NCBI GenBank assembly: GCA_030378035.1
Contig: JAUCGI010000037.1
Location: 1 to 38,081 of the forward strand
Direction: 5' to 3'
DNA from: Desulfobacterales bacterium HSG2
Lineage (GTDB): Bacteria; Desulfobacterota; Desulfobacteria; Desulfobacterales; 4be13
Length of the DNA: 38,081 bases
In this document: piece by piece, positions 2,985-22,391 of the stretch
Position numbering within the stretch: the first letter of the stretch is position 1
How the letters are laid out: each line of letters opens with the position of its first letter
The notes under the pieces: generated by a model
What the model was told of the DNA's origin: nothing
The model's input: the letters and a program-made list of their open reading frames with translations, nothing else
Database searches by the model: none
Made by a program: the position numbers and the translations under genes

Positions 2985-3178
2985 CTTCCAAAGTTTTGAA
3001 AACTTCGGAAGAGGACAGCCCTGTATCGTGCGGGAAAAATCTTTACCATGAAAATACATTTTCATCACCGGGGTGAAAAGTCCTTTTCATGGAAGTTTAT
3101 GTGGAATCCCTGGAATCCCTGTAGTTTTGTTCAGAAGTTTTCAAATATCAGTTGCAAAAAACACAGGTACCTGATAAA
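2985..3178. repeat. leader repeat shared with the DGR target genes
   Basis: This roughly 190-bp block, from ACTTCCAAAGTTTTGAAAAC to ACACAGGTACCTGATA, recurs with minor changes at about 19331-19520, upstream of the target gene at 19808. Its last 50 bp recur at about 14410-14460, upstream of the target at 14550. Here it precedes a broken FGE remnant. The block therefore travels with the leader region of this gene family. Confidence 0.75.
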
Positions 3179-3445
3179 TAAGCTGAATCAGAAGGAAGAC
3201 ACCGGCAAATGCAGGTTGCCGACCAAGGCGGAATGGGGATACGCCTGCGGGAACGGATACGCCGTTTTCGTTCGGAATGTGTCTGTCAGCGGATCAGGAC
3301 AATTATGATGGCAGGTATCCGCTGGAAGGCCGTTCCAATGGGAACTATCAGGAAAAAACGGTTCCGGTCGCAAGGTTTCTCTGCCAATTCATGGGGCTGT
3401 ATGATATGCATGGAAATGTTTGGGAGTGCGGAGTTTCCTTGGATA
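3179..3445 (+). pseudogene. FGE-sulfatase domain remnant, broken DGR target
   Basis: Two frames carry fragments matching the intact FGE domains elsewhere in the window: KLNQKEDTGKCRLPTKAEWG in one frame, then CLSADQDNYDGRYPL and GLYDMHGNVWE in another. DNA similarity is closest to the target at 14550 (its region from about 16085 to 16330). The remnant has a frameshift near 3270 and stops before the point where a variable repeat would begin, so no VR is present. There is no signal peptide or start. It shows that another target copy once lay here, next to the chimeric gene at 3668 that carries a DGR accessory head. Confidence 0.8.
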
Positions 3446-3573
3446 AACAAGCCTGCATACCGAGACTATAATTTTAGGCATAACTACAAGGAACTGGTGT
3501 GGCAAGGATGGGCGGAGCTGTCCCTTTTATCCTTACCAAACCCGATCCCTGTAGTTACCATCTACTACCACAA

Positions 3574-3627
3574 CTTGCAAATTCGTCCCCCACTCTTATA
3601 ATGGAAAAGGGGGTGACGAATTTACAA
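3574..3627. repeat. long imperfect hairpin upstream of the glycosyltransferase gene
   Basis: TTGCAAATTCGTCCCCC pairs with GGGGGTGACGAATTTACAA around a loop of about 18 bp containing TATAATGG. It lies 40 bp upstream of the ATG at 3668. It could be a leader structure or cruciform. TATAAT within the loop is compatible with a promoter -10 box, but no good -35 box was identified. Confidence 0.5.
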
Positions 3628-3667
3628 AGTTGCTGTACTACATGGATTACGAGTATAGAGGGAATAC

Positions 3668-6148
3668 ATGTTCAAAATCATCACAATGCCTTTTAACCGA
3701 AACATAGAAAACTTCGATGAAGACCTGCTGAACCACTTCTCCGTGGACAAGTACATCAGAAGCCAAGCCGAATTCTTTGCAGGAGGAACAGCCGATATCT
3801 GGCGCTGCTATCACAGAGTCCGGAACGCGATATGGACCAAAGCCATGGCCAGAGTGGATTTTGACACGTTTAGCATTGAAGAAAATCTCAGACACCTATA
3901 CCGCATCCCGTTTCTGACTCTATCCTATGTGATTCAGGTATTGATCTGGCCGCCTGCGAGAGCTGAAAGTCAGAAGCCGGAACTCAAAGATCGGATGGCG
4001 GAACCCGAAGATCGGGAAGCCGAAGATCGGAAGCCGGAAATCAAAGATCGGATGGCGGAAGCTGAAGATCGGAAGCCGGAACTCAAAGATCGGATGGCGG
4101 AAGCTGAAGATCGGAAGCCGGAACTCAAAGATCGGATGGCGGAAGCTGAAGATCGGAAGCCGGAACCCGAAGATCGGAAGCCGGAACCCGAAGATCGGAA
4201 GCCGGAACCCGAAGATCGGAAGCCGGAACCCGAAGATCGGAAACCGGAACCCGAAGATCGGAAACCGGAACCCGAAGATCGGAAGTTGGAACTCAAGACT
4301 GAACCTGAAGATCGGAAGCCGGAAATCAAAGATCAGAAGTCGGAAATCAAAGATCGGAAGCCGGAACATCGGAAGCCGGAACTCGAAGATCGGATGGCGA
4401 GACTCGAAGATCGGATGGCGAGACTCGAAGATCAGATGGCGGAACTCAAGCCGGAACCCGAAGATCGGAAGCCGGAACTCGAAGATTGGAAGCTGGAACT
4501 CGAAACTCGAAAGCCGGAAGCCAAAACTCGATACCCGGAAGCCGCTGACCGCCCGTCTCTCGTCTCGGCCCGATTTTCAGTCCTTGTGCCCACATACAAC
4601 AGCCATCTCGGTTATTTTAGGGAACTGACTGATTCCCTCAAGGCCCAGACATACGATCACTTTGAGGTGTGCGTGAGTGATGACGCATCAACCGATGCGA
4701 TGCTTGAAGATTATCTGAAAGATCTTGCCGAGAACGATTCCCGTTTCCGAGTAATGTTCTGGGAGAAAAACGGCGGCATCGCGGAGAATACCAACCGGGC
4801 CATGAACATGGCAAGGGGCGATTTTCTGGTACTGTGTGACCATGATGATCGCATGGACCCCTTTGCCCTTGAAGCCTTTGCTGAGTATGTCAGTGATCAT
4901 CCTGAGAGCGATGTGATTTACACTGATGAGGACATGATTGATACCCGAGGTTTTCGCCACAGCCCCCGGTTCCAGACCGACTGGAACCCGGATCTCCTGA
5001 CAAGCCATATGTACTGTCCCCATCTCATCGCTGTAAGAACCAGTCTGGCAAAGGATGCGGGGCTTATGGAACCCTTGCTGGACGGGGCTCAGGACTATGA
5101 TTTCTTTCTGAGAGTCACGGAAAAGGCGCGTCACGTCGGCCATATCCCTCTGATTCTCTATTCATGGCGCAGCGCGCCCGGGTCCATTGCCATGGATTGC
5201 GCGGAAAAGATGTACGCGTATGAAGCCGGCAGAATAGCCCTTGAAAATGCCATGGAAAGACGAGGAGAGGATGCCGTGGTGGTAAAGGTTCCGGGAACGA
5301 ATCTGGGGGTCTACCGGGTAAAGCGGAAGGTTTCGGAATGCGATGTGTCTCATATTGTGGAAGGCCGTACCAAAGATGTGATTACCGCTGTGAGGAGCAT
5401 AAGACTGGTTTCGCCAGTTCCCGTGGAGATACTGGTGGTTACTGAAGATGATCGGGATGAGGTTTCGGAGGTTTTGGAAAAGGAGCGGGATGTGAAGCTG
5501 ATCATCGGGCCCAAAGGTTCCGGCAGGGCAGGGCTTTATAATCAGGGGGCCGGTGCCGCTCAATCCCGATTCTTATTTTTTTCCGGGCACAATGTGGAGA
5601 TTCTGGACAGCGAATATCCTCTGGCCGCACTGGAACATACCCGGAGGCCCGAGATCGGCGCGGTGGGAGTGAAACTGAGTTATCCTAACGGCCGGTTTTA
5701 TCATACCGGCATGATTATGGGCGTGAACGGGCTTTGCGGTTATGCCCATCGGAATACGCCCCATGGTCCCGGTTATTTCAACTATGCCGCGTGTATAAGG
5801 AATTATACCGCGGTGTCATGGGATCTGATGGCTGTGGATAAGCGGAAATGGGAGGAGGCAGGCGGTTTCGATGAGACCCTGCCCTTTTACGGAGATATTG
5901 ATTTTTGTCTGAAGCTGATACGCGAAGGGTACCGAAACCTTTACACGCCTTATATTTCAGGGGTGTTAAAAAGCAGGGTTCACGGGTTGGAGGAACTCCG
6001 CAACAAAGAGGCCGCTCATATCCTGATAGGCCGATACGGAAGCGAGATATTGGAGGATCCCTTTTACCATCCGCTACTTTCAAAGCTGGTTGAGGACTTT
6101 TCAGTAGCTCGAAACTCGGAAGCCGACCTTGAGAGTCCTGCGGAATAA
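3668..6148 (+). CDS. chimeric protein: DGR-accessory head, heptad linker, double-domain family 2 glycosyltransferase
   Basis: An 826-residue protein with three parts. Residues 1-40 (MFKIITMPFNRN...HFSVDK...AEFF) are nearly the same as the start of the HRDC accessory protein at 11375, also at DNA level. Residues 41-97 are not recognised. Residues about 98-296 are a heptad repeat, mainly EDRKPEP or DRMAEAE and ending in LEDRMARLEDQMAEL, probably an extended helix or coiled coil. From about residue 302 comes a GT-A glycosyltransferase: VLVPTYNS, VSDDASTD, NGGIAENTN, the CDHDD metal-binding region near 390 and VIYTDED near 415. A second GT2-like half ends with GGFDETLPFYGDIDFCLKL. This resembles O-antigen or surface-glycan transferases with two GT2 modules. 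The start follows AGAGGGA. The head probably came from recombination with a DGR cassette. Confidence 0.85.
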   Translation: MFKIITMPFNRNIENFDEDLLNHFSVDKYIRSQAEFFAGGTADIWRCYHRVRNAIWTKAMARVDFDTFSIEENLRHLYRIPFLTLSYVIQVLIWPPARAESQKPELKDRMAEPEDREAEDRKPEIKDRMAEAEDRKPELKDRMAEAEDRKPELKDRMAEAEDRKPEPEDRKPEPEDRKPEPEDRKPEPEDRKPEPEDRKPEPEDRKLELKTEPEDRKPEIKDQKSEIKDRKPEHRKPELEDRMARLEDRMARLEDQMAELKPEPEDRKPELEDWKLELETRKPEAKTRYPEAADRPSLVSARFSVLVPTYNSHLGYFRELTDSLKAQTYDHFEVCVSDDASTDAMLEDYLKDLAENDSRFRVMFWEKNGGIAENTNRAMNMARGDFLVLCDHDDRMDPFALEAFAEYVSDHPESDVIYTDEDMIDTRGFRHSPRFQTDWNPDLLTSHMYCPHLIAVRTSLAKDAGLMEPLLDGAQDYDFFLRVTEKARHVGHIPLILYSWRSAPGSIAMDCAEKMYAYEAGRIALENAMERRGEDAVVVKVPGTNLGVYRVKRKVSECDVSHIVEGRTKDVITAVRSIRLVSPVPVEILVVTEDDRDEVSEVLEKERDVKLIIGPKGSGRAGLYNQGAGAAQSRFLFFSGHNVEILDSEYPLAALEHTRRPEIGAVGVKLSYPNGRFYHTGMIMGVNGLCGYAHRNTPHGPGYFNYAACIRNYTAVSWDLMAVDKRKWEEAGGFDETLPFYGDIDFCLKLIREGYRNLYTPYISGVLKSRVHGLEELRNKEAAHILIGRYGSEILEDPFYHPLLSKLVEDFSVARNSEADLESPAE

Positions 6149-6174: not shown

Positions 6175-6222
6175 GGGTAAGAAAGGATTATGCCCGACCG
6201 AACCACACAATCCGTGCAGATG
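6175..6222. repeat. leader repeat (GGGTAAGAAAGGATTA / CACAATCCGTGCAGATG)
   Basis: A shortened copy of the repeat found as long palindromes at 13571-13638 and 17131-17206 and as a leader at 8630-8687. It sits 18 bp before the start of target 1. Because it recurs next to two target genes, the TR cassette and the CHASE2 gene, it is either a shared leader element or a small mobile repeat. Confidence 0.6.
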
Positions 6223-6240
6223 AAAAGAAGGAGGAGACTC

Positions 6241-8362
6241 ATGAAAAAAGTAGCTATGTGTATGGTCGTTCTGTTCTGTTTTTCTTTTCTGGCCGCGGCG
6301 CTGGCATGGAACGACGGCCGGGGGATCAAAAGGATCAAGAAAATCGCCGATCTGAGCCATGACAGCGGGAAGCTGGGAAGGTATCACGCCCTGGTCATCG
6401 GAATCGACAAATATCAGGATGACCTGATCCGAAATTTGAAGACGGCCCGGAACGATGCCGTGGCAGTGGCCGGGTTGCTCAGGGAGCGTTACGGGTTCCG
6501 AACGGAGCTCCTGCTGGACGGGCAGGCCACGAAGGAGGCTGTTTTCAATGCCCTGCGCCGGCTGGCCGCCGAGTCGGAGGAGCATGACAGTCTGCTGATT
6601 TATTATGCCGGGCACGGGGAGCCTGACCCGGTTTACAATGATGGTTGGTGGATTCCGACGGACGCGGAGGCGGGGAAACCCCTGACCTATCTGCGCAACA
6701 CCGAGGTGCAGATGGCCATGAAGAGCATGAACGCCCGGCATGTCCTGCTGATCTCCGACTCCTGCTATTCGGGAACGCTTTTCGGGCAGACCCGTGGAAT
6801 GCCGACAGTGATTGGTGAGCGGTATTACCTGAGTCTGCACAATAAGAAGAGCAGGTGGGGCATGACCTCGGGGAGCATGGAGCCCGTGTCGGATCTCGGA
6901 AGCGGGGGGCACAGCATCTTTGCCTACCAGTTGCTCAGTGCGTTGGAGGAGAATGAAAAGGCATACATCAGCACCCAGGAGATATTCACCCAGATCGCAC
7001 CGGTTGTCGGAAACAACTCGACGCAGACTCCGGAATGCCGGCCGATTCTGCACACCGGTGATCTGGGCGGACAGTTTGTGTTTGTAAGGTCAAAGGGTAT
7101 CAGGGTGGCAACAGGCGGGGCAACCGTGACCCGGCCCTCGGCAAAAGGCACTCTGGATGTGGAATGCAGCGTGTCCGGTGCGAGGGTGCTGGTGGACGGC
7201 GGATATGTTGGAACGACGGATCTGTCAGGTGTGGCGGTCACGCCGGGCGAGCACAGGATACTTGTCGAAAAGGAGGGGTATGAGACCTATCAGCGTCGGA
7301 TAAGCATCGAGGCGGGAAGGAGCATGTCCCTGTTTGTGGAACTGACGCCTGTGAAGAAAAAGATGAGGCTCTATGTGGACACACATCCCGCAGATGCGGG
7401 CATACGGATTCTGAACATCCGGCCCCGTTTTCGTCAGGGGATCGAACTGGACCCGGGTGAGTACCATCTGGAAATATCGGCTGACGGATATGAAACGGAA
7501 AAAAGATGGATCACGACGGAGGCGGGAAGGGACAGAAGTCTGAGCATTCGTCTGAACGCGGTTATTGTTGCCAGCAGGCCGGCTGAAAGCGGTTTTGCCA
7601 ACAGCATCGGCATGAAGTTTGTTCACATATCGGCGGGGACGTTTATGATGGGAAGTCCTTCGGATGAGCCCGAAAGGGACGATGATGAAAGGCTGCACCG
7701 GGTGACGCTGACCAAGGGTTTTTACATGCAGACCACCGAGGTGACCCAGGGACAGTGGAAGGCGGTTATGGGAAGCAATCCGTCCCGTTTTAAAAACTGC
7801 GGGAATAACTGTCCGGTTGAGAAGGTCTCCTGGGATGATGTGCAGGAGTTCATAAAGAAGCTGAACCGGAAGGAAGGTACGGGCAAATACAGACTACCGA
7901 CCGAAGCCGAATGGGAATACGCTTGTCGTGCTGGTACGAAAACGGCTTTATACACAGGCAATATAAGGATACTTGGTGATAATAACGCGCCGGCACTTGA
8001 CAGCATGGTACGGGGGAAACAGTTGTGTAAGTTACTCAGGCGGCCATGACTGTTCGAGTTGGGATGAAAAGCAATATTCCTGTCCAAAGTGCGGCACAAA
8101 CCCGGTTGCTCAGAAGAAGCCGAACGCGTGGGGACTGTATGACACCATTGGTAATGTATATGAATGGTGTCAGGACACTTTCGGTACCGATATATATGCC
8201 AGAGATCAAACCGATCCTATATATATAGTCGGCTCTGATCGGGTGATTCGGGGCGGCCGTTGGTTCGACGACGCCCGTCACTGCCGCTCGGCCTACCGGT
8301 ACAGCGACAGCCCGGACAACAGGAGCAGCCACGTCGGGTTCCGTCTCGCCAGGACCCCTTAA
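6241..8362 (+). pseudogene. DGR target 1: exported caspase-PEGA-FGE protein, frameshifted before its VR
   Basis: About 95% identical by eye to the intact gene at 8705. The start at 6241 is preceded by AAGGAGGAGACTC and gives a signal peptide (MKKVAMCMVVLFCFSFLAAALA). In order follow a caspase-like (peptidase C14) domain with YYAGHGE and SDSCYSG catalytic motifs, two PEGA domains and an FGE-sulfatase domain. At 8002-8006 only one AGCAT is present where the paralogue has two (10472-10481). This 5-bp loss shifts the frame and stops the protein at 8049. The remaining FGE part, with the variable repeat, is open in another frame (7973-8362). As written the product lacks its variable region. Slippage between AGCAT copies could reverse this, so phase switching is possible; a sequencing error is the alternative. 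Confidence 0.85.
8226..8352 (+). other. DGR variable repeat VR1
   Basis: Aligns gap-free over 127 bp with the TR at 13290-13416. By hand count there are 15 differences, 13 at TR adenines. TR codons SWNNNARNC become RWFDDARHC. The 3' constant block GTCGGGTTCCGTCTCGCCAG is unchanged. In the present sequence it is out of frame with the caspase start because of the upstream frameshift. Confidence 0.95.
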
Positions 8363-8452: not shown

Positions 8453-8690
8453 GCGAATCCAAAGGGATGCAGTTTTTTTTGGACAAACGAAGCATGGAAT
8501 CCTGCATACCGATACTATAATTTTAGGCATAACCACAAGGATTGTGGATAAAAAACTTCCATGAAAAGGACTTTTCACCCCCGGTGATGAAAATCTATTT
8601 TCATGGTAAAGGATTGCTCTCAGCCGAGGACCCGTAATCCTTTCTTACCCACAATCCGTGTAGATGGACGCACAATCCGTGCAGATAATC
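8453..8690. repeat. repeat-rich spacer between targets 1 and 2
   Basis: No gene is visible. It holds a CATACCGATACTATAATTTT stretch also found at about 3457-3495, a block ending CCGGTGATGAAAATC related in inverted orientation to about 19580-19630, and the AATCCTTTCTTACCCACAAT leader repeat at 8630-8687 with a doubled CACAATCCGTG. These repeats could have mediated the target duplication. Confidence 0.6.
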
Positions 8691-8704
8691 AAAGGAGGAG
8701 ACTC

Positions 8705-10837
8705 ATGAAAAAAGTAGCTATGTGTATGGCCGTTCTGTTCTGTTTTTCTTTTCTGGCCGCGGCGCTGGCATGGAACGGCGGCCGGGGGATCAAAAGGATC
8801 AAGAAAATCGCCGATCTGAGCCATGACAGCGGGAAGCTGGGAAGGTATCACGCCCTGGTCATCGGAGTCAACAAATATCAGGATGACCTGATCCGAAATT
8901 TGAAGACGGCCCGGAACGATGCCGTGGCGGTGGCCGGATTGCTCAGGGAGCGTTACGGGTTCCGAACGGAGCTCCTGCTGGACGGGCAGGCCACGAAGGA
9001 GGCTGTTTTCAATGCCCTGCGCCGGCTGGCCGCCGAGTCAGAGGAGCATGACAGTCTGCTGATTTATTATGCCGGCCACGGGGAGCCTGACCCGGTTTAC
9101 AATGATGGCTGGTGGATTCCGACGGACGCGAAGGCGGGGAAACCCCTGACCTATCTGCGTAACACCGAAGTGCAGATGGCCATGAAGAGTATGAACGCCC
9201 GGCATGTCCTGCTGATCTCCGACTCCTGCTATTCGGGAACGCTTTTCGGGCAGACCCGTGGAATGCCGACAGTGATTGGTGAGCGGTATTACCTGAGTCT
9301 GCACAATAAGAAGAGCAGGTGGGGCATGACCTCGGGGAGCATGGAGCCCGTGTCGGATCTCGGAAGCGAGGGGCACAGCATCTTTGCCTACCAGTTGCTC
9401 AGTGCGTTGGAGGAGAATGAAAAGGCATACATCAGCACCCTGGAAATATTCACCCAGATCGCACCGGTTGTCGGAAACAACTCGACGCAGAGTCCGGAAT
9501 GCCGGCCGATTCTGCACACCGGTGATCTGGGCGGGCAGTTTGTGTTTGTAAAGTCAAAGGGAATTGAGGTGGCAACAGGTGGTGCAACCGTGACCCGGCC
9601 CTCGGCAAAAGGGACTCTGGATGTGGAATGCAATGTGTTCGGTGCGAGGGTGCTGGTGGACGGCGGATATGTTGGAAAGACGGATCTGTCAGATGTGACG
9701 GTCACGCCGGGCGAGCACGGGATACTTGTCGAAAAGGAGGGATATGAGACCTATCAGCGCCGGATAAGCATTGAGGCGGGAAGGAGCATGTCCCTGTTTG
9801 TGGATCTGACGCCTGTGAAAAGAAAGACGAGGCTCTATGTGGACACACATCCCGCAGATGCGAGCATACGGATTCTGAATATCCGGCCCCGATTTCATCA
9901 GGGGATCGAACTGGATCCGGGTGAGTACCATCTGGAAATATCGGCTGACGGATATGAAACGGAAAGAAGATGGATCACGACGGAGGCGGGAAGGGACAGA
10001 AGTCTGAGCATTCGTCTGAACGCGGTTATTGTTGCCAGCAGGCCGGCTGAAAGCGGGTTTACCAACAGCGTTGGCATGAAGTTTGTTCACATATCGCCGG
10101 GGACGTTTATGATGGGAAGTCCCTCGGATGAGCCGGGCCGATATGATGATGAAAGGTTGCACCGTGTGACACTGACCAAAGGTTTTTACATGCAGACCAC
10201 GGAAGTGACCCAGGGGCAGTGGAAGGCGGTTATGGGAAGCAATCCTCCGAAACTTCGTTTTAAGAACTGCGGTGACAACTGTCCGGTGGAGCGGGTCTCC
10301 TGGAATGATGTGCAGGAATTCATAAAGAAGCTGAATAGGAAGGAAGGCGCGGGCAAATACAGACTGCCGACCGAAGCTGAATGGGAATATGCCTGTCGTG
10401 CCGGTACGGAAACGGCTTTATACACAGGCAATATAAGGATACTTGGCAAACGTAATGCACCGGCACTTGACAGCATAGCATGGTACGGAGGAAACAGTTG
10501 TGTAAATTACTCAGATGGCTATGATTGTTCGAGCTGGGATGAAAAGCAGTATTCCTGTCCAAAATGCGGCACAAGCCCGGTTGCTCAGAAGAAACCGAAC
10601 GTGTGGGGACTGTATGACACTATTGGTAATGTATATGAATGGTGTCAGGACACTTTCGGTACCGATATATATGCCAGAGACCAAACCGATCCTATATATA
10701 CAGTCGGCTCTGATCGGGTGATTCGGGGCGGCGGTTGGTACGACTACGCCCGTTACTGCCGCTCGGCCTTCCGGGACAGCCTCAGCCCGGACTACAGGAG
10801 CAACTACGTCGGGTTCCGTCTCGCCAGGACCCCTTAA
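8705..10837 (+). CDS. DGR target 2: exported caspase-like protease with PEGA and hypervariable FGE/CLec domain
   Basis: A 710-residue protein that starts at 8705 after AAAGGAGGAGACTC; an in-frame ATG upstream at 8603 lacks this site. Residues 1-22 form a signal peptide ending ALA. Residues about 47-285 are a peptidase C14 caspase-like domain with His125 in YYAGHGE and Cys175 in SDSCYSG, both catalytic residues present. Two PEGA repeats follow (about 302-370 and 376-440), then an FGE-sulfatase domain from about 452 to the end with GMKFVHISPGTFMMGS, EVTQGQWKAVMG, RLPTEAEWEYACRAG and GFRLAR. Residues about 666-708 are encoded by VR2. Six cysteines cluster at 599-650, perhaps as disulfides. It is the intact member of a tandem pair and is likely exported. 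I infer that binding by the variable domain is coupled to the protease; substrate and ligand are unknown. Confidence 0.92.
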   Translation: MKKVAMCMAVLFCFSFLAAALAWNGGRGIKRIKKIADLSHDSGKLGRYHALVIGVNKYQDDLIRNLKTARNDAVAVAGLLRERYGFRTELLLDGQATKEAVFNALRRLAAESEEHDSLLIYYAGHGEPDPVYNDGWWIPTDAKAGKPLTYLRNTEVQMAMKSMNARHVLLISDSCYSGTLFGQTRGMPTVIGERYYLSLHNKKSRWGMTSGSMEPVSDLGSEGHSIFAYQLLSALEENEKAYISTLEIFTQIAPVVGNNSTQSPECRPILHTGDLGGQFVFVKSKGIEVATGGATVTRPSAKGTLDVECNVFGARVLVDGGYVGKTDLSDVTVTPGEHGILVEKEGYETYQRRISIEAGRSMSLFVDLTPVKRKTRLYVDTHPADASIRILNIRPRFHQGIELDPGEYHLEISADGYETERRWITTEAGRDRSLSIRLNAVIVASRPAESGFTNSVGMKFVHISPGTFMMGSPSDEPGRYDDERLHRVTLTKGFYMQTTEVTQGQWKAVMGSNPPKLRFKNCGDNCPVERVSWNDVQEFIKKLNRKEGAGKYRLPTEAEWEYACRAGTETALYTGNIRILGKRNAPALDSIAWYGGNSCVNYSDGYDCSSWDEKQYSCPKCGTSPVAQKKPNVWGLYDTIGNVYEWCQDTFGTDIYARDQTDPIYTVGSDRVIRGGGWYDYARYCRSAFRDSLSPDYRSNYVGFRLARTP
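10701..10827 (+). other. DGR variable repeat VR2
   Basis: Gap-free 127-bp match to the TR with 17 hand-counted differences, 14 at TR adenines. [11 protein letters not shown] becomes GWYDYARYC, and several AAC codons become TAC, GAC, TTC or CTC. It is in frame at the end of target 2, nine bases before the stop codon. Confidence 0.96.
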
Positions 10838-10907: not shown

Positions 10908-11374
10908 TCGTCATTCAGGGTAAAAAAGGGGCAATCGGGGGAAGATCAGCATTTTTCCAAATAAAAGGGGCAGGAGTCCCGCACATCGGCCCATAATTTT
11001 TTTTATCATCAGAATCGACAAAAAATTTTAGGTCGCGGAGCTTTCTTCCTGAATTTTTATAATCTTTTGGATTATTATAACCAAAGAACTATATTGGACG
11101 ATCTTTGCGAGCAATTTTTTATAACTTCGAGCATAACTACAAGGATTTGGTTTAGTAAGGATGTGTATTAAACTCAATCCTATTAGTTACGAAAAATAAC
11201 TAACTGATAAAAAAACCTTTACAAAACACATCAACAAGTATATACAGCTTTTTGTCACACGGAAATCAGCATATAGTAAATAAACACAGCATATATACAT
11301 CTGCCATATTGTATATATGCATACACATTCACTATATACTATATTTTTTTCTTACCATTATACATAGGGAAAAT
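10908..11374. other. AT-rich spacer before the DGR operon
   Basis: About 470 bp without a convincing gene. It becomes strongly AT-rich from about 11000, with TATATACAGC-, TATATACATC- and TATACTATATT-like stretches just before the ATG at 11375. This is the natural place for the promoter of the accessory-Avd-RT-TR transcript, but no -35/-10 pair stands out enough to be called. Confidence 0.45.
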
Positions 11375-11947
11375 ATGTTCAAAATAGTAACAATCCCTTT
11401 TAACCGAAACATAGAAGGTTTTGATGAGGACCTGCTGAACCACTTCTCGGTAGATAAGCACATCAGAGGCTACCGAGCCGAATTCTTTGTAGACGGCGAA
11501 GAGAAATACTGGACCGTGTTTGTTGAATATGAACCGGTTCTTGAAGAAAAAACCTCCCGCCAGAAAAAAAGAAGTCAGGATCTCGGTCTTGATGAAACCC
11601 AGAAAGTCCTCTTTGAAAGACTCAGAAAATGGCGAAGGGAACGGTCCAAAAAAGACGGACTGTCGGTCTATATCCTGGGAACCAACAGCGAGCTGGCAGA
11701 AATTGTCAAATCAGCTCCCAGAAGCCTTGAAGCACTTTCAAATGTGAAAGGATTCGGCAAAAGCAAAGTTAAAAGCTACGGAAAGGACATTATCAGCATC
11801 GTCAAAGCATTCTATGCAGATAAAGGCCCGGAAACCCAACCGGAACCTGAAAAGGAACCAGCAACTGAAAATCATCCGAAACCGGATGAGGAACCAACAA
11901 CTGAAAATCATCCGAAACCGGATAAGAAATCGGAAACCAAGGAATGA
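11375..11947 (+). CDS. DGR accessory protein with HRDC domain
   Basis: A 190-residue protein. Residues 1-50 form a motif-like head (MFKIVTIPFNRN, LNHFSVDK, AEFF, YWTVFVEYEP) that is repeated in the chimeric gene at 3668. Residues about 74-148 match an HRDC fold, the nucleic-acid-binding helical domain of RecQ helicases and RNase D: LFERLRKWRRERSK..., VYILGTN, LAEI, LSNVKGFGKSKVKSYG. The tail (150-190) is proline- and acid-rich with a repeated ENHPKPD. HRDC proteins are known DGR accessory genes and may act on the cDNA or TR RNA. The start at 11375, after ATAGGGAAAAT, is preferred over the longer frame from 11252 because the head sequence begins there. It overlaps avd by 4 bp (ATGA), so the two are translationally coupled. 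Confidence 0.88.
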   Translation: MFKIVTIPFNRNIEGFDEDLLNHFSVDKHIRGYRAEFFVDGEEKYWTVFVEYEPVLEEKTSRQKKRSQDLGLDETQKVLFERLRKWRRERSKKDGLSVYILGTNSELAEIVKSAPRSLEALSNVKGFGKSKVKSYGKDIISIVKAFYADKGPETQPEPEKEPATENHPKPDEEPTTENHPKPDKKSETKE

Positions 11948-12276
11948 AAGAGAATTACCCCATCTTCGTCAAATGGCTTGAAGCAACCGACTGGATACTC
12001 GAAAGACTCGACAAATATCCCAAATCCGTCCGATCCACCATATCAAACCGGATCGCCGACATGACCCTTGACGTCATGGAACAGATCATCGAAGCCATAT
12101 ACACAAAAAACAGATCGCCCATATTGGACAGAATCAACCTGCACATAGAAAAGCTCAGAGTCATGTTCAGGATAAGCTTTAAAAGACGGTACATATCCAA
12201 AAAACAGTACGCATACATCAGCGAATCGCTCAATGAAACCGGAAGAATGGTGGGAGGCTGGAAAAAAAGACCATGA
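11944..12276 (+). CDS. avd: DGR accessory variability determinant
   Basis: A 110-residue, basic, all-helical protein matching the Avd four-helix bundle family: YPIFVKWLEATDWILERLDK, FPKSVR-like YPKSVRSTISNRIAD, IIEAIYTKNRSPILDRINL, EKLRVMFRIS and a C-terminal NETGRMVGGWKK. Avd forms a pentameric barrel that binds reverse transcriptase and TR RNA and is required for mutagenic cDNA synthesis in studied DGRs. Length is typical. It overlaps the HRDC gene at its start and the RT gene at its end by 4 bp each, giving a tightly coupled operon. Confidence 0.95.
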   Translation: MKENYPIFVKWLEATDWILERLDKYPKSVRSTISNRIADMTLDVMEQIIEAIYTKNRSPILDRINLHIEKLRVMFRISFKRRYISKKQYAYISESLNETGRMVGGWKKRP

Positions 12277-13292
12277 AACGCAAAGGCTACCTTTTTGAAG
12301 AAATCATCACCTTTGAAAACCTGTACGAAGCTTTCAGAAAAGCATACAGCGGATCAGGCAGAACCGGAGAGACATGCCGTTTCAATTTCAACCTGGAAAA
12401 CGAGCTGCTTCAGCTAAAAACGGAAATTGAAACCGAAAGATACAAACCTGCCAGATACAGATATTTCAAAATCTTCGACCCCAAAGAAAGGCAGATCAGC
12501 GTGGCCCCCTTTCGGGACCGTGTGGTGCATCACGCCCTCGTCCGGGTCATCGAGCCTGTTTTTGAACGAAGCTTCATCTTTGACTCCTATGCCACCCGCG
12601 TCGGAAAAGGCACACACCGGGCAGTGGAACGGGCACAGAAATTCCTCAGAAAAAATTTCTGGTATCTGAAAACAGACGTTGAGAAATATTTCGACAGCGT
12701 TGACCACGATATCCTGCTGAAACTGATCCGCAGAAAAATCAAAGATGAAAAAGTCATCAGACTCACAGAAAAAATCATTCGCAACAGCGACCGGAGCAGA
12801 GACCTCGCACACGGAAAAGGTCTGCCCGTGGGAAACCTGACCAGCCAGTTCTTCGCCAATGTTTACTTGGATCCGCTCGACCACTTCATAAAAGACCGCC
12901 TGGGCGTGAAATGCTACATCCGATACATGGATGACATGGTCATATCCTCGGATTCCAAAGATGACCTCAGAGACCTTCTCAAAATAAAGGAAACCTTTCT
13001 CGCGGAGAATTTGGAACTGAGGCTGAATCCGAAAGCGACCCGCCTGAACAACTGCCTTCACGGGCTTCCGTTCCTCGGATTCATGATATTCCCGAATCTG
13101 AAAAGAATCAGAAAAGAAAACCTGAAGCGGGTCAAAAAAAGACTGAGGCAGCGAAAAAACGAGTTTGAAGCCGGCATCATCACAGAGGAGCAGTTTGCGA
13201 TGAGCGTCCGGTCCGTGTTTGAGCATGTCAGGTTTGCCGACACCTACAGGCTCAGAAGATCATTTCTTGCAGACTGGGCAGGCGTCGAATAG
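12273..13292 (+). CDS. DGR reverse transcriptase
   Basis: A 339-residue reverse transcriptase of DGR type. Visible motifs are [17 protein letters not shown] (72-89), [14 protein letters not shown] (133-146) with the first catalytic Asp, [18 protein letters not shown] (183-200), which carries the SQ version of motif 4 seen in DGR enzymes, [10 protein letters not shown] (215-224) with the catalytic Asp pair, and LPFLGFMI near 270. There is no maturase or endonuclease domain, as expected. It copies the TR RNA into cDNA with errors opposite adenines. It starts by a 4-bp overlap with avd. Its TAG stop forms the first bases of the TR. The coding strand is A-rich compared with the GC-richer targets. 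Confidence 0.97.
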
Positions 13293-13416
13293 TCGGCTCT
13301 GATCGGGTGATTCGGGGTGGCAGTTGGAACAACAACGCCCGTAACTGCCGCTCGGCCAACCGGAACAGGAACAGCCCGGACAACAGAAACAACAACGTCG
13401 GGTTCCGTCTCGCCAG
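13290..13416 (+). other. DGR template repeat (TR)
   Basis: A 127-bp non-coding template matching all four VRs gap-free. It contains 32 adenines, many in AAC triplets at the variable positions. AAC gives NNC codons when both A positions vary, so no stop codons can arise. The invariant 3' block at 13397-13416 (GTCGGGTTCCGTCTCGCCAG) fits the initiation-of-mutagenic-homology segment; identity ends abruptly after it. The TR begins with the RT stop codon. Three TR bases or codons disagree with every VR: T13318, AGG at 13367-13369 and A13387. Confidence 0.97.
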
Positions 13417-13522
13417 CACACGGAATAAGTGAGATTCGGTTCGTTTACGGATGGCCCGAGAGTACCTTTCTGTGTCCAGACGCCTGCCCCGCTCCGGGAT
13501 TTCCCGGACGAATATTCCCATT

Positions 13523-14549: not shown

Positions 14550-16529
14550 ATGAAAAGAAGGCCGCTGTTTTTCATATCCGTTCTGACAGGAATTCTGCTG
14601 GTCTCGTCTCTGAGCTTTTCCGACAGGACCATAATACGAAACCAGGATGGGAAGAGCCGGCTGGCCCTTGTGATCGGAAATGCCGATTACAAGGGGGAGG
14701 CCCTGCTGAGAAATCCGGTCAATGACGCACGGGACATGACCCGCGCCCTGAGAAGCCTCGGTTTCGAGGTGATTCACAGGGAGAACGCCAAAATCAGGGA
14801 GATGAAGGACGCCTTGCGGGAATTCGGGAGGCGGCTGAGCAGAGGCGGAGGCACGGGCCTGTTTTATTTTGCGGGTCACGGGATTCAGGTGAGGGGGCGG
14901 AATTATCTGATTCCGATCGGAGCGGAGATCGATACCGAATCGGATGCGGAATTCGAGTCCGTGGATGCCGGCCGTGCGATGGGGAAGATGCAGGATGCGG
15001 GGAACGCGCTGAACATTGTCATTCTGGATGCGTGCCGGAACAATCCGTTCACCAGGGGGTTCAAAAGCAGAGGCCCGGGTTCCCGGGGTCTGGCAAAGAT
15101 GAACGCGCCGACCGGCTCGATCATCGCCTATGCCACCGCTCCGGGATCGCTGGCCAAGGACGGCACGGGCCGGAACGGTGTTTACACCAAGCATCTGATA
15201 AGGCACATGAGGACTCCGGGGCTGACCATCGAGCGGGTCCTGAAAAACACCCGCATTGATGTGGCCAGGGAGACCGGAAGGAAACAGATTCCTTGGGAGC
15301 ATTCGTCGCTGATGGGGGATTTTTATTTTGCCAGCAGCAGCTTCGGCCGGGATGAGCCGCAGCCCGTGCCTTCGGCAAAAGGTTCCCTGGATGTGGAATG
15401 CAGCGTGTCCGGTGCGAGGGTGCTGGTGGACGGCGGATATGTTGGAACGACGGATCTGTCAGGTGTGGCGGTCACGCCGGGTGAGCACGGGATACTTGTC
15501 GAAAAGGAGGGGTATGAGACCTATCAGCGTCGGATAAGCATCGAGGCGGGAAGGAGCATGTCCCTGTTTGTGGAACTGACGCCTGTGAAGAAAAAGATGA
15601 GGCTCTATGTGGACACATATCCGGCAGATGCGGGCATACGGATTCTGAACATTCAGCCCCGTTTTCATCAGGGGATCGAGCTGGAACCGGGTGAGTACCA
15701 TCTGGAAATATCGGCTGACGGATATGAGACAGAGAGGCGATGGATCACCGCTGGGGCGGGGGACAGAAATCTGAGTATCCGCCTGAACGCCGTTGTTGCT
15801 GCCCGGCCGGATGAAAGCGGGTTCACCAACAGCATCGGCATGAAGTTTGTTCACATATCGCCGGGGACGTTTATGATGGGAAGCCCATCGGATGAGCCTG
15901 AAAGGGACGATGATGAAAGGCTGCACCGAGTGACGCTGACCAAAGGTTTTTATATGCAAACTACGGAGGTGACTCAGGGGCAGTGGAAGGCGGTTATGGG
16001 GAACAATCCGTCCAATTTTAAGAACTGCGGGAACAACTGTCCGGTTGAGCAGGTCTCCTGGGATGATGTGCAGGAGTTCATAGAGAAGCTGAACCGGAAG
16101 GAAGGCGCGGGCAAATACAGCCTGCCGACCGAAGCTGAATGGGAATATGCCTGCCGTGCCGGAACGGACACGCCGTTTTCGTTCGGAAGGTGTCTGTCAA
16201 CAAATCAGGCCAATTATGACGGCAACTATCCGCTGAAAGGCTGTTCCAAAGGGAAATATCGGGAAAAAACGGTTCCGGTCGCAAGCTTTCCCGCCAATCC
16301 GTGGGGGCTGTACGATATGCATGGGAATGTCTGGGAATGGTGCCAGGATACTTTCGGTATATATGCCAGAGACCAAACCGATCCTATATATATAGTCGGC
16401 TCTGTTCGGGTGTTTCGGGGCGGCAGTTGGGTCTACGACGCCCGTGACTGCCGCTCGGCCAACCGGTACAGCTACAGCCCGGCCTACAGGCTCAACTACG
16501 TCGGGTTCCGTCTCGCCAGGACCCCTTAA
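14550..16529 (+). CDS. DGR target 3: exported caspase-like protease (different type) with PEGA and hypervariable FGE domain
   Basis: A 659-residue protein starting after AAAGGAGATAACTT. Residues 1-24 are a signal peptide (MKRRPLFFISVLTGILLVSS). The caspase-like domain (about 37-262) is of a different subgroup from targets 1 and 2: LALVIGNADYKGEALLRNPVND, His110 in YFAGHG, Cys162 in LDACRNNP, and GSIIAYATAPGS, the common metacaspase-like arrangement. Two PEGA repeats follow, almost identical to those of target 2. From about residue 425 comes the FGE-sulfatase domain, but its middle (CLSTNQANYDGNYPLKGCSK) belongs to the version seen in target 4 and in the 3.2-kb remnant. The C-terminus is encoded by VR3. 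The family thus exchanges catalytic and recognition modules around conserved PEGA linkers. Confidence 0.93.
   Translation: MKRRPLFFISVLTGILLVSSLSFSDRTIIRNQDGKSRLALVIGNADYKGEALLRNPVNDARDMTRALRSLGFEVIHRENAKIREMKDALREFGRRLSRGGGTGLFYFAGHGIQVRGRNYLIPIGAEIDTESDAEFESVDAGRAMGKMQDAGNALNIVILDACRNNPFTRGFKSRGPGSRGLAKMNAPTGSIIAYATAPGSLAKDGTGRNGVYTKHLIRHMRTPGLTIERVLKNTRIDVARETGRKQIPWEHSSLMGDFYFASSSFGRDEPQPVPSAKGSLDVECSVSGARVLVDGGYVGTTDLSGVAVTPGEHGILVEKEGYETYQRRISIEAGRSMSLFVELTPVKKKMRLYVDTYPADAGIRILNIQPRFHQGIELEPGEYHLEISADGYETERRWITAGAGDRNLSIRLNAVVAARPDESGFTNSIGMKFVHISPGTFMMGSPSDEPERDDDERLHRVTLTKGFYMQTTEVTQGQWKAVMGNNPSNFKNCGNNCPVEQVSWDDVQEFIEKLNRKEGAGKYSLPTEAEWEYACRAGTDTPFSFGRCLSTNQANYDGNYPLKGCSKGKYREKTVPVASFPANPWGLYDMHGNVWEWCQDTFGIYARDQTDPIYIVGSVRVFRGGSWVYDARDCRSANRYSYSPAYRLNYVGFRLARTP
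16393..16519 (+). other. DGR variable repeat VR3
   Basis: Gap-free 127-bp match to the TR with 17 hand-counted differences, 15 at TR adenines. [11 protein letters not shown] becomes SWVYDARDC. Two upstream adenines (in GATCGG and GTGATT) are also changed to T, so mutagenesis reaches towards the 5' end of the repeat. Confidence 0.96.
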
Positions 16530-19807: not shown

Positions 19808-20941
19808 ATGAAAAGAAGGCTGCTGTTTTCTGTATTAATTTTGGCAGGAATTCTGTCAGTCTCGTCTCTGAATTTTTCCGAGAAGGCCGTAAGACAGAAT
19901 CAGGAAGGAGATGTGACGGAAACCGGGTCGGATCACATCCGTCTGAACGCTGTTGACGCTGACCGCTCGGATAAAAGCGAGTTCACCAACAGCATCGGCA
20001 TGAAGTTTGTTCTTATATCGCCGGGGACATTTATGATGGGAAGCCCTCCGGATGAGCCGGGCCGATTTGATAGGGAAAGGCTGCACCGGGTGACGCTGAC
20101 CAAAGGTTTTTACATGCAGACTACGGAGGTGACCCAGGGGCAGTGGAAGGCGGTTATGGGAAACAATCCGTCCGAGTTTAAGAACTGCGGGAACAACTGT
20201 CCGGTTGAGAAGGTCTCCTGGGATGATGTGCGGGAGTTCATAAAGAAGCTGAACCGGAAGGAGGGCGCGGGCAAATACAGACTGCCGACCGAGGCTGAAT
20301 GGGAATATGCCTGTCGTGCCGGAACAGACACGCCGTTTTCGTTCGGAAGGTGTTTGTCAACGGATCAGGCTAATTATTGGGGTGAGTATTTTTCGCTGCC
20401 CGGCTGTCCCAAAGGAGAAGATCGAGGCAAGACGGTTTCGGTTGCAAGCTTTCCCGCCAATTCGTGGGGACTGTACGATATGCATGGGAATATTCACGAA
20501 TGGTGTCAGGACACTTTCGGTACCGACACATATGCCAGAGACCAAACCGATCCCATATATATGGTCGGCTCTGATCGGGTGCTTCGGGGCGGCAGTTGGT
20601 TCAGCTTCGCCCGTATCTGCCGCTCGGCCGACCGGCGCAACCTCAGCCCGGACAGCAGGGGCAGCAACTTCGGGTTCCGTCTCGCCAGGACCTATCAGCG
20701 CCGGATAAGCATTGAGGCGGGAAGGAAGCATGTCCCTGTTTGTGGACCTGACGCCCGTGCCGGCAAAGGCGAGGCTTTATGTGGACACATATCCGGCGGA
20801 TGCGAGCATACGGATTCTGAACATCCGGCCCCGGTTTCTGCGTTGCAGGAGCGGGACATATCCGTTCATCCGCAGGCAGAGTATGAGTTGCACTACATAG
20901 GGATATCGGATTGGCCGTTTCTTTGTGGATGTGCTGGCTGA
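19808..20941 (+). CDS. DGR target 4: exported FGE-only protein with VR4 and a scrambled tail
   Basis: A 377-residue frame starting after TAAGGAGGTAGTTT. The signal peptide (MKRRLLFSVLILAGILSVSS) is close to that of target 3, but the caspase and PEGA parts are missing: about residue 58 begins directly with the FGE domain (NSIGMKFVLISPGTFMMGS, CLSTDQANYWGEYFSL). VR4 supplies the end of the FGE domain to GFRLAR. Instead of the usual TP-stop, the frame runs into TYQRRISIEAGR, a PEGA piece, shifts frame by one inserted A near 20728, and ends in sequence that belongs to the GxxExxY gene (ALQERDIS...AEYELHYIG). The roughly 75-residue tail is therefore an artefact of recombination and unlikely to be functional. 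The FGE part itself looks intact. Confidence 0.85.
   Translation: MKRRLLFSVLILAGILSVSSLNFSEKAVRQNQEGDVTETGSDHIRLNAVDADRSDKSEFTNSIGMKFVLISPGTFMMGSPPDEPGRFDRERLHRVTLTKGFYMQTTEVTQGQWKAVMGNNPSEFKNCGNNCPVEKVSWDDVREFIKKLNRKEGAGKYRLPTEAEWEYACRAGTDTPFSFGRCLSTDQANYWGEYFSLPGCPKGEDRGKTVSVASFPANSWGLYDMHGNIHEWCQDTFGTDTYARDQTDPIYMVGSDRVLRGGSWFSFARICRSADRRNLSPDSRGSNFGFRLARTYQRRISIEAGRKHVPVCGPDARAGKGEALCGHISGGCEHTDSEHPAPVSALQERDISVHPQAEYELHYIGISDWPFLCGCAG
20562..20688 (+). other. DGR variable repeat VR4
   Basis: Gap-free 127-bp match to the TR, the most diverged of the four: 22 hand-counted differences, 18 at TR adenines. [11 protein letters not shown] becomes SWFSFARIC. It includes one G-to-T change in the otherwise constant GTCGGG. 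The usual downstream flank and hairpin are absent because a PEGA fragment joins after CTCGCCAGGACC. Confidence 0.95.
20690..20837 (+). pseudogene. PEGA domain fragment
   Basis: DNA matching the PEGA region of the caspase targets (for example from about 9750 onward), beginning at ACCTATCAGCGCCGG and running to CCCCGGTTT. One extra A (AGGAAGCATG against AGGAGCATG) breaks the frame. The left junction lies in the shared ACC of GGACC/GAGACC, suggesting recombination at microhomology. Confidence 0.8.
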
Positions 20942-21519: not shown

Positions 21520-22265
21520 AGCGGATATGACAACGGATCGGAGGATGAGACGGATTTGCCTGTTATCCGTTTCATCCTGATATCCGTTGTCATTTTTTAC
21601 CCGAATATGACAACGGATCAGGGGATTAAACGGATTTGCCTGTTATCCGTTTCATCCTGATATCCGTTGTCATTTTTCACCCGAATATGACAACGGATCA
21701 GAGGATTAAACGGTTTTGCCTGTTATCCGTTCAATCCTAATATCCGTTGTCATTTTTTACCCGAATATGACAACGGATCAGGGGATGAAACGGTTTTGCC
21801 TGTTATCCGTTTCATCCTGATATCCGTTGTCATTTTTCACCCGAATATGACAACGGATCAGGGGATGAAACGGTTTTGCCTGTTATCCGTTTCATCCTGT
21901 TATCCGTTGTCATTTTTTACCTGATATCCGTTCAATCCTGATATCCGTTGTCATTTTTTACCTGATATCCGTTTAATCCTAATATCCGTTGTCATTTTTC
22001 ACCCGAATATGACAACGGATCAGGGGATGAAACGGTTTTGCCTGTTATCCGTTCAATCCTGATATCCGTTGTCATTTTTCACCCGAATATGACAACGGAT
22101 CAGGGGATGAAACGGTTTTGCCTGTTATCCGTTCAATCCTAATATCCGTTGTCATTTTTCACCCGAATATGACAACGGATCAGAGGATGAAACGGTTTTG
22201 CCTGTTATCCGTTCAATCCTGGTATCGGTTGTCATTTTTCACCCGAATATGACAACGGATCAGGG
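21520..22265. repeat. array B of ~80-bp palindromic units (about 10)
   Basis: A regular array of the unit seen in array A, with starts near 21525, 21606, 21686, 21766, 21846, 22006, 22087, 22167 and 22246, and half units near 21920-22000. Each full unit is an imperfect palindrome: ATGACAACGGATCAGGGG ... ATCCTGATATCCGTTGTCAT. Units are separated by a TTTTTCACCCGAAT linker. Unit-to-unit similarity is very high, indicating recent amplification. Confidence 0.9.
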
Positions 22266-22391
22266 GAAGGGATATAATGCCTTCTGACCGGCTTTGGAAC
22301 AATGTGGCCCCATAGTGGATGATGAAATAAAAAAAAAGAAAAGCTTGACATGAATCATGAATCCATATAATATTTTGTCCAATAACACTGA

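What the first reader, a model, noticed from the sequence alone, without database searches (positions are those of the whole stretch)
3668..6148. Glycosyltransferase with a DGR-accessory head and expandable heptad linker
The protein joins an accessory-type N-terminus, about 28 heptads (21-bp DNA unit) and a two-module GT2 enzyme. The heptad DNA is so regular that other frames also stay open, indicating recent expansion. The head may be a docking or targeting tag that was moved onto another enzyme.
Basis: partly seen in the sequence, partly recalled or inferred. Interest (0 to 1): 0.55.

Follow-up and report, generated by a model that had tools for sequence, protein, structure and literature searches.

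The report
Chimeric glycosyltransferase with seven-base repeat linker
A sugar-transferring enzyme gene lost its first part, picked up the start of a neighbouring retroelement gene, and had its linker filled by a seven-base DNA repeat of a kind that also fills linkers of other multi-domain proteins in this bacterium and some of its relatives.

Summary
The feature is real. P0001 (3668-6148) has a 37-38 residue head copied from the 5' end of the HRDC accessory gene of the window's own DGR (83% DNA identity over 127 bp), a ~28-unit 21-bp array, and two GT2 modules. "Docking tag moved onto another enzyme" is not supported. The best same-family relative (G003) is a three-module GT without heptads; P0001 keeps scraps of its lost first module and interdomain region between head and array. 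So it is a chimera: HRDC 5' fragment + GT remnant + repeat array + two maintained-looking GT2 modules. The head stops before the last strand of its parent domain, and no second GT fusion turned up among the hits examined. The heptads come from a degenerate 7-bp tandem array; such an array encodes the same heptapeptide in all three forward frames. Arrays of this kind sit between domains of kinases, ACP/polyketide-type synthases and others in this genome, and orthologous ACP linkers carry different 7-mers in related genera. The chimera itself is modest; the linker-filling arrays are the more interesting result. Whether they are selected or merely tolerated is untested.

The parts
3174..3428 (+). 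Remnant of an FGE/C-type-lectin DGR target gene, ending before the variable repeat
   Evidence: 83% DNA identity to 16080-16339
3659..3667 (+). Bases before the ATG, with ribosome-binding site, shared with the HRDC gene
   Evidence: Inside the 127-bp match; duplex energy -6.3 against -5.9 for the HRDC gene
3668..3782 (+). Head: copy of the first 37-38 codons of the HRDC accessory gene
   Evidence: 83% DNA identity to 11366-11492; NG86 8.0 synonymous and 7.0 non-synonymous differences in 37 codons, ratio 0.16
3797..3835 (+). Remnant of the end of the lost first GT module (aa 44-56, IWRCYHRVRNAIW)
   Evidence: Matches P0002 242-254, VWRSYYRTRNSLW; 0 of 2000 shuffles of aa 39-56 reach the score
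3830..3970 (+). Remnant of the ancestral interdomain region (aa 55-101)
   Evidence: Matches P0002 423-474; 0 of 2000 shuffles of aa 55-101 reach the score. About 170 residues of the G003 protein between the two remnants are missing, with a Trp codon at both edges
3973..4519 (+). 21-bp (3 x 7-bp) tandem array coding the charged, proline-containing heptapeptide linker
   Evidence: TRF 27.5 copies; identity at lag 7 0.507, 14 0.495, 21 0.753, against mean 0.250 and maximum 0.431 at lags that are not multiples of 7
4574..5332 (+). GT2 module 1 with DHDD motif
   Evidence: PF00535, aa 304-462; dN/dS 0.13 against G003
5390..6112 (+). GT2-like module 2, acidic motif lost in both this protein and G003
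   Evidence: TIGR03965 match at aa 576-762; SGHNVEI / SAGNAEI where 8 of 8 outgroups carry an acidic residue in the motif; dN/dS 0.06, dS saturated
11375..11947 (+). HRDC accessory gene of the DGR, relative of the source of the head
   Evidence: PF00570 3.3e-18; HRDC fold E 4.8e-5 to 2rhf
11944..12276 (+). Avd of the DGR
   Evidence: NF033474 7.1e-28
12273..13292 (+). DGR reverse transcriptase
   Evidence: PF00078 5.8e-26; phrog_1423 7.5e-121
13289..13419 (+). DGR template repeat
   Evidence: Mismatches to four VRs fall mainly on template A

Best explanation
P0001 is a chimeric but apparently maintained glycosyltransferase. Shown: (a) 513 aligned residues at its C-terminal end are 73% identical to the two C-terminal GT2 modules of a three-module GT in G003; (b) short remnants of that protein's first module and interdomain region survive between head and array; (c) the first 37-38 codons and the ribosome-binding site match the 5' end of a DGR HRDC gene, and a DGR target remnant lies just upstream; (d) the linker is a 7-bp-derived tandem array, of a kind found in frame between domains of several other proteins of this genome. 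Inferred: a duplicated DGR target/accessory fragment recombined into the truncated GT gene and supplied a new start. Translation then begins at the HRDC-derived ATG, the head is a passive leader, the linker is a flexible charged spacer that grows and shrinks by slippage of 7-bp units (frame kept in steps of 21 bp), and the enzyme still transfers a sugar in cell-surface or exopolysaccharide synthesis.
For: Head homology and shared ribosome-binding site. Relationship to the G003 protein and remnants. No gaps over 513 codons, dN/dS 0.10. At 113 columns conserved in outgroups the window alone departs at 3 and G003 alone at 6, so no sign of relaxed constraint. 7-bp substructure. Dispersed arrays: 24 DNA matches in the own genome, itself included; (CGGAAAC)3 at 76 overlapping sites here, and in only 5 of 291 order genomes at all. 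Array segments lie outside the listed Pfam stretches save for edge overlaps. Orthologous ACP linkers carry different 7-mers in related genera. Duplication and recombination of DGR parts is in print (PMC10907252, passages read).
Against: The age of the fusion is unknown: the head may have diverged inside another HRDC gene before the fusion, and low dN/dS may mostly reflect time before it. The head's dN/dS of 0.16 could mean constraint on the head itself, or only on the HRDC gene. No expression data. A search of the own genome for the missing N-terminal half found nothing, but it had no positive control and did not report the remnants either, so it shows little. Array length in a draft assembly may be wrong. 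Module 2 lacks the acidic motif, so one of the two modules may be inactive (shared with G003).
Confidence: 0.78

Rival explanations
1. The head is a docking or targeting module recruited from the DGR accessory protein, which brings the GT to the DGR machinery or to a shared partner.
For: The head stays in frame with few amino-acid changes against many synonymous ones (8.0 synonymous, 7.0 non-synonymous; ratio 0.16); a low-confidence model of the head still draws a beta-alpha-beta-beta arrangement with GT-derived residues as the last strand.
Against: The copied part ends before the last strand of the parent domain; the head model has mean pLDDT 41.9; no second head-GT fusion among the hits translated; truncated HRDC 5' ends also occur as apparent debris in genomes where no full HRDC gene was found.
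Confidence: 0.07
2. The gene is dead or dying: a pseudogene that happens to be open, helped by the stop-free array.
For: It lost a whole module, sits beside FGE debris, and none of the downstream G003 genes examined resembles those downstream in the window.
Against: GT2 part gapless over 513 codons with dN/dS 0.10 and fewer departures at conserved sites than G003, 3 against 6; ribosome-binding site present.
Confidence: 0.12
3. Assembly chimera: a false join between the HRDC region and a GT contig.
For: Draft genome in 288 contigs with repeats on both sides.
Against: The head is only 83% identical to the HRDC copy, so it is a separate locus and not a collapsed one; GT remnants continue directly after it.
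Confidence: 0.04

Closest known systems
Multi-module GT2 glycosyltransferases; best solved match by E-value is chondroitin synthase 2z87 (7.4e-18)
   Same: GT2 fold family, tandem modules, DxD-type motif in module 1
   Different: First module deleted, foreign 37-38 residue head, repeat-array linker, module 2 without the acidic motif
HRDC accessory protein of DGRs (Treponema denticola, PMC4891356, passages read; Prosthecochloris aestuarii plasmid pPAES01)
   Same: First 37-38 codons and ribosome-binding site of P0001 match the window's own HRDC gene
   Different: No HRDC domain, and the N-terminal domain is incomplete
Heptameric repeats of Xanthomonas and Nostoc (PMC4692102, passages read)
   Same: Dispersed 7-bp tandem arrays
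   Different: Those are reported as under-represented in coding regions; here a good part of the examined arrays sits in frame between protein domains
Amino-acid tandem repeats of archaeal Borg elements (PMC9879509, passages read)
   Same: DNA tandem repeats that create disordered stretches in proteins
   Different: In Borgs all repeat units within ORFs are divisible by three; here the unit is 7 bp and is frame-neutral because it repeats
Duplicated and degraded DGR loci of Thiohalocapsa PB-PSB1 (PMC10907252, passages read)
   Same: DGR parts duplicated, recombined and degraded next to repeats
   Different: There target C-termini are recombined with new N-termini; here an accessory 5' end became the start of an unrelated enzyme

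Membership tests
GT2 glycosyltransferase | PF00535 above the gathering cut-off | tested here: met
   116.1 bits against 23.3, two stretches
GT2 glycosyltransferase | DxD-type acidic motif, module 1 | tested here: met
   DHDD aligned in all ten proteins of the alignment
GT2 glycosyltransferase | DxD-type acidic motif, module 2 | tested here: not met
   SGHNVEI; an acidic residue in the motif of 8 of 8 outgroups, absent here and in G003
GT2 glycosyltransferase | Sugar transfer | not testable with these tools
   Needs an assay
DGR HRDC accessory protein | N-terminal beta-alpha-beta-beta domain, complete | tested here: not met
   Copied part stops at codon 37-38; strand 43-52 of the parent is missing
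DGR HRDC accessory protein | HRDC domain | tested here: not met
   No PF00570 in P0001
DGR HRDC accessory protein | Gene directly before Avd/RT | tested here: not met
   7.7 kb upstream of the HRDC gene, which itself holds that place
7-bp tandem (STRR-like) array | 7-bp periodicity | tested here: met
   Lag-7 identity 0.507 against mean 0.250, maximum 0.431, at other lags
7-bp tandem (STRR-like) array | Near-perfect copies | tested here: not met
   75-77% matches at period 21/42: a degenerate array now in 21-bp register
Coiled-coil heptad linker | Hydrophobic a/d heptads without prolines | tested here: inconclusive
   26 Pro in 194 residues argues against most of it; the short stretch LEDRMARLEDRMARLEDQMAEL could fit; no coiled-coil predictor was run

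The most novel reading that the evidence does not exclude
In this family of bacteria, lineage-specific 7-bp tandem arrays act as a recurrent linker-building system. They enter or expand at interdomain positions of megasynthases, histidine kinases, glycosyltransferases and secretion proteins. Because the unit is coprime with the codon length they need no frame on arrival. Each genus fills the same orthologous linkers with its own heptapeptide (RKPETGN, SKLETRN, HRPSPIA), and copy-number change would tune linker length in steps of three units or switch the downstream frame.
Probability: 0.4. Interest if true: 0.65.

Novelty: new variant of a known kind. Interest (0 to 1): 0.42.

Why it matters
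In the best-studied comparable case that I read (Borgs) tandem repeats inside genes have units divisible by three. Here a 7-bp unit is tolerated between domains of large enzymes and encodes the same heptapeptide in every forward frame, so it can be accepted whatever the frame. If expansion is frequent, it is a simple natural route to new flexible linkers and perhaps to frame-switching of megasynthases and kinases. The chimera shows how a start site and N-terminus can be acquired from retroelement debris.

Tried and rejected
Head as a widespread fusion tag: sought in 291 order genomes (10 with a match at E<=0.001, the window's own included), 389 class genomes with a profile (25 with a match at E<=0.01, own included; the weak ones not followed up), viral contigs (none confirmed), phages (none), plasmids (one, an HRDC gene), and a pattern scan of 84,980 species genomes (82 stretches matched, 7 confirmed). 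No second GT fusion among those translated. Limit: the scan rests on two short conserved peptides and finds close relatives only.

A fixed break point in HRDC 5' fragments, as if a DGR cDNA always ended there: truncated heads end at about codons 21-38 in the window, G198 (same locus as L072), G007, L073 and L074. But in those genomes other than the window's no full HRDC gene and no full RT at E<=1e-30 was found, so loss of the DGR is simpler. Kept as a note.

Dating the fusion from head divergence: rejected, the head could have diverged inside another HRDC gene. The stop-survival simulation was therefore not used as evidence.

Structure of the head in P0001: mean pLDDT 41.9, not interpretable. 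PHROGs: nothing for head or HRDC protein. Rfam at gathering scores: nothing. One search found no files under the names it looked for; the analysis was done. Paper searches without use: no paper; 8 of 16 listed, none on the subject; Rickettsia palindromic elements, sought as a precedent; listing only, none read.

Full report
WHAT IS THERE. The window is the whole contig G000:C263 of an unnamed draft genome (5.6 Mb, 288 contigs, 72.6% complete). ORF 3668-6148 encodes P0001, 826 aa. Its first 37-38 codons and the bases just before the ATG match the 5' end of the gene at 11375-11947 at 83% DNA identity over 127 bp. That gene is an HRDC protein followed by Avd and a reverse transcriptase, with a template repeat at 13289-13419. 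Four variable repeats differ from it mainly at template A: 13 of 16, 14 of 17, 13 of 16 and 16 of 21 core mismatches. HRDC accessory genes of DGRs are in print (PMC4891356, passages).

ANCESTRY OF THE ENZYME. Of 58 genomes searched (own included), 56 have some match to P0001 at E<=1e-5, mostly at the level of GT2 genes in general. One, G003 of the same family, matches P0001 302-815 at 73% identity (E 1.7e-264), far above the next best (37%). I take it as the orthologue. It is a 1037-aa protein with three GT2 modules. It has no heptads; its linker is an ordinary stretch. P0001 residues 44-56 match the end of the G003 first module and residues 55-101 its interdomain region; 0 of 2000 shuffles reach either score. 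About 170 residues of the G003 protein between the two remnants are absent, with a Trp codon at both edges, and everything before the first remnant is replaced by the head. A search of the held own genome with the first 492 residues of the G003 protein found nothing at E<=0.001; it had no positive control and did not report the remnants either, so it shows little.

WHERE THE HEAD CAME FROM. Just upstream of the head lies debris of a DGR target: 3174-3428 is 83% identical to part of the FGE region of the gene at 14550-16529, without its variable repeat. The parent N-terminal domain is modelled as strand 2-8, helix 18-24, strands 30-40 and 43-52 (mean pLDDT 73.1 for the whole protein); the copied part lacks the last strand. 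A head model is not interpretable (mean pLDDT 41.9). Among genomes searched for the head, 10 of 291 (order) and 25 of 389 (class, profile) have a match, the window's own included; many of the latter are weak and were not followed up. Those that I translated are HRDC genes, truncated HRDC 5' ends, or, in L070, an HRDC start joined to the RT end. None of them is a GT. Duplication, recombination and decay of DGR parts is described for Thiohalocapsa (PMC10907252, passages).

IS IT A WORKING GENE. The start at 3668 has a Shine-Dalgarno duplex energy of -6.3 (HRDC gene -5.9); no other in-frame start before the GT2 domain is better than -3.5; a GTG at residue 336, inside the domain, has -6.9. The GT2 part has no gaps over 513 codons against G003, dN/dS 0.10 (0.13 and 0.06 for the two modules; dS is 1.7 and 3.1 for whole and module 2, so saturated). 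At 113 columns conserved in at least 7 of 8 outgroups the window alone departs at 3, G003 alone at 6, both at 20. So the enzyme part looks maintained, though these numbers may mostly reflect time before the fusion. Module 2 has lost its acidic motif in both proteins.

THE LINKER. The array has period 21 (27.5 copies), but identity is also raised at lag 7 (0.507) and 14 (0.495), against a mean of 0.250 and a maximum of 0.431 at lags that are not multiples of 7. It is thus best read as a degenerate 7-bp array in 21-bp register. It is less regular than many arrays in the same genome (75-77% against 90-100%). It carries 26 Pro, 53 Lys/Arg and 69 Asp/Glu in 194 residues, so most of it is unlikely to be a canonical coiled coil. 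A 7-bp tandem array encodes the same heptapeptide in all three forward frames, which explains why frames stay open; 11,256 of 16,380 7-mers are stop-free in this sense.

THE GENERAL PATTERN. The array DNA has 24 matches in its own genome, itself included, and each of the 19 other loci fetched holds a 7-bp array. Of 27 distinct arrays (period 7, 14 or 21, TRF score at least 90) in L024-L042, 12 lie in a frame open for at least 40 codons on both sides and 15 do not; at least one of the 12 (L032) reads as antisense. Nine proteins were examined. In eight, 18 segments pass a lag-7 threshold; L045 fell below it although its repeats are visible. All 18 lie outside the listed Pfam stretches, save for edge overlaps of at most 14 residues. 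One search lists only the best stretch per family; for three of the four ACPs the edges were extrapolated from the first. Examples (protein labels are mine, from the Pfam content): Hpt-[array]-HATPase in a CheA-like protein (L044), REC-[array]-Hpt (L033), ACP-[array]-ACP-[array]-ACP-[array]-ACP (L035), a polyketide-synthase-type protein (L040), and a pseudopilin leader directly before the methylation motif (L024). These ORFs were chosen because they stay open, so arrays that break a gene are not seen.

RELATIVES. (CGGAAAC)3 occurs at 76 overlapping sites in this genome and in only 5 of 291 order genomes at all, once or twice in each of the others. Orthologues of the ACP protein were compared: 33 loci (28 from the 30 best loci of 141 matching genomes, plus G000-G004), 67 inter-ACP linkers. 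With lag-7 identity at least 0.45 and codon-shuffle p<=0.01, 8 of 67 are 7-bp periodic: G000 3 of 3, G002 2 of 2, G004 1 of 1 (weak, 0.48), G079 (another family) 2 of 2; G003 0 of 2; the remaining 27 orthologues 0 of 57 (two of these passed p<=0.01 with lag-7 of only 0.36). G001 gave no linker in this count because only one ACP motif was recognised, but TRF shows GGGCGAT arrays beside it; G002 carries GAAACTC. So the same linkers hold different 7-mers in different genera. In other stretches 7 bp is the commonest unit up to 12 bp: window 4 of 6 arrays, G000 5 of 16, G003 3 of 3, G002 16 of 21; none in one shuffle of each. This is not a random sample: the G000 and G003 stretches come from contigs already in hand for other reasons.

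AGAINST KNOWN WORK. Heptameric G-rich repeats in Xanthomonas and Nostoc are reported as under-represented in coding regions (PMC4692102, passages). Borg repeats in ORFs all have units divisible by three (PMC9879509, passages). Frameshifts in protein tandem repeats have been surveyed (PMC12871928, abstract and section list). I saw no paper on 7-bp arrays as interdomain linkers among the titles listed (none; 10 of 21; 12 of 436; 10 of 56; 8 of 16); these searches hold open-access full text only and most of the hits were not looked at.

VERDICT. The chimera is real and explained by ordinary genome plasticity. The tag idea is not supported. The wider pattern, frame-neutral 7-bp arrays filling interdomain linkers with genus-specific heptapeptides, deserves follow-up; whether it is selected or merely tolerated is open.

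Noticed in passing
8225-8355, 10700-10830, 13289-13419, 16392-16522, 20561-20691: A DGR with one template repeat and four variable repeats in or just behind FGE genes (three of the four genes also carry caspase and PEGA domains); mismatches are concentrated at template A.
   Followed up: yes
6190-8049: Caspase-PEGA-FGE target ORF stops before its own variable repeat (8225-8355), while the sibling at 8603-10837 runs through; apparently a broken target gene.
   Followed up: partly
L063/L072, L065, L073, L074: Isolated 5' ends of the HRDC gene (about 21-37 codons) in other genomes; in L063 (= L072), L065 and L073 they sit right after an FGE target gene, and L072 and L073 show a hairpin between, loop near CCGAAGGATA (similar in L068). 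No full HRDC gene found in these genomes.
   Followed up: partly
L070 4854-5406: HRDC head joined at about codon 50 to the C-terminal half of the DGR RT, with a TR-like sequence directly upstream.
   Followed up: partly
L024 1474-1998: Pseudopilin-like protein whose leader before the prepilin motif is a RKPETGN array.
   Followed up: partly
L035, L139-L143: Inter-ACP linkers of a polyketide/PUFA-type synthase carry different 7-bp arrays in G000 and G002, with a third 7-mer array beside the ACP in G001.
   Followed up: yes
21525-22267 and 634-953: Other tandem arrays of the window: 80-bp unit x 9.3, and 32/59-bp units.
   Followed up: no
3467-3645: Two imperfect palindromes between the FGE debris and the head, perhaps terminators or MITE-like elements.
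   Followed up: no
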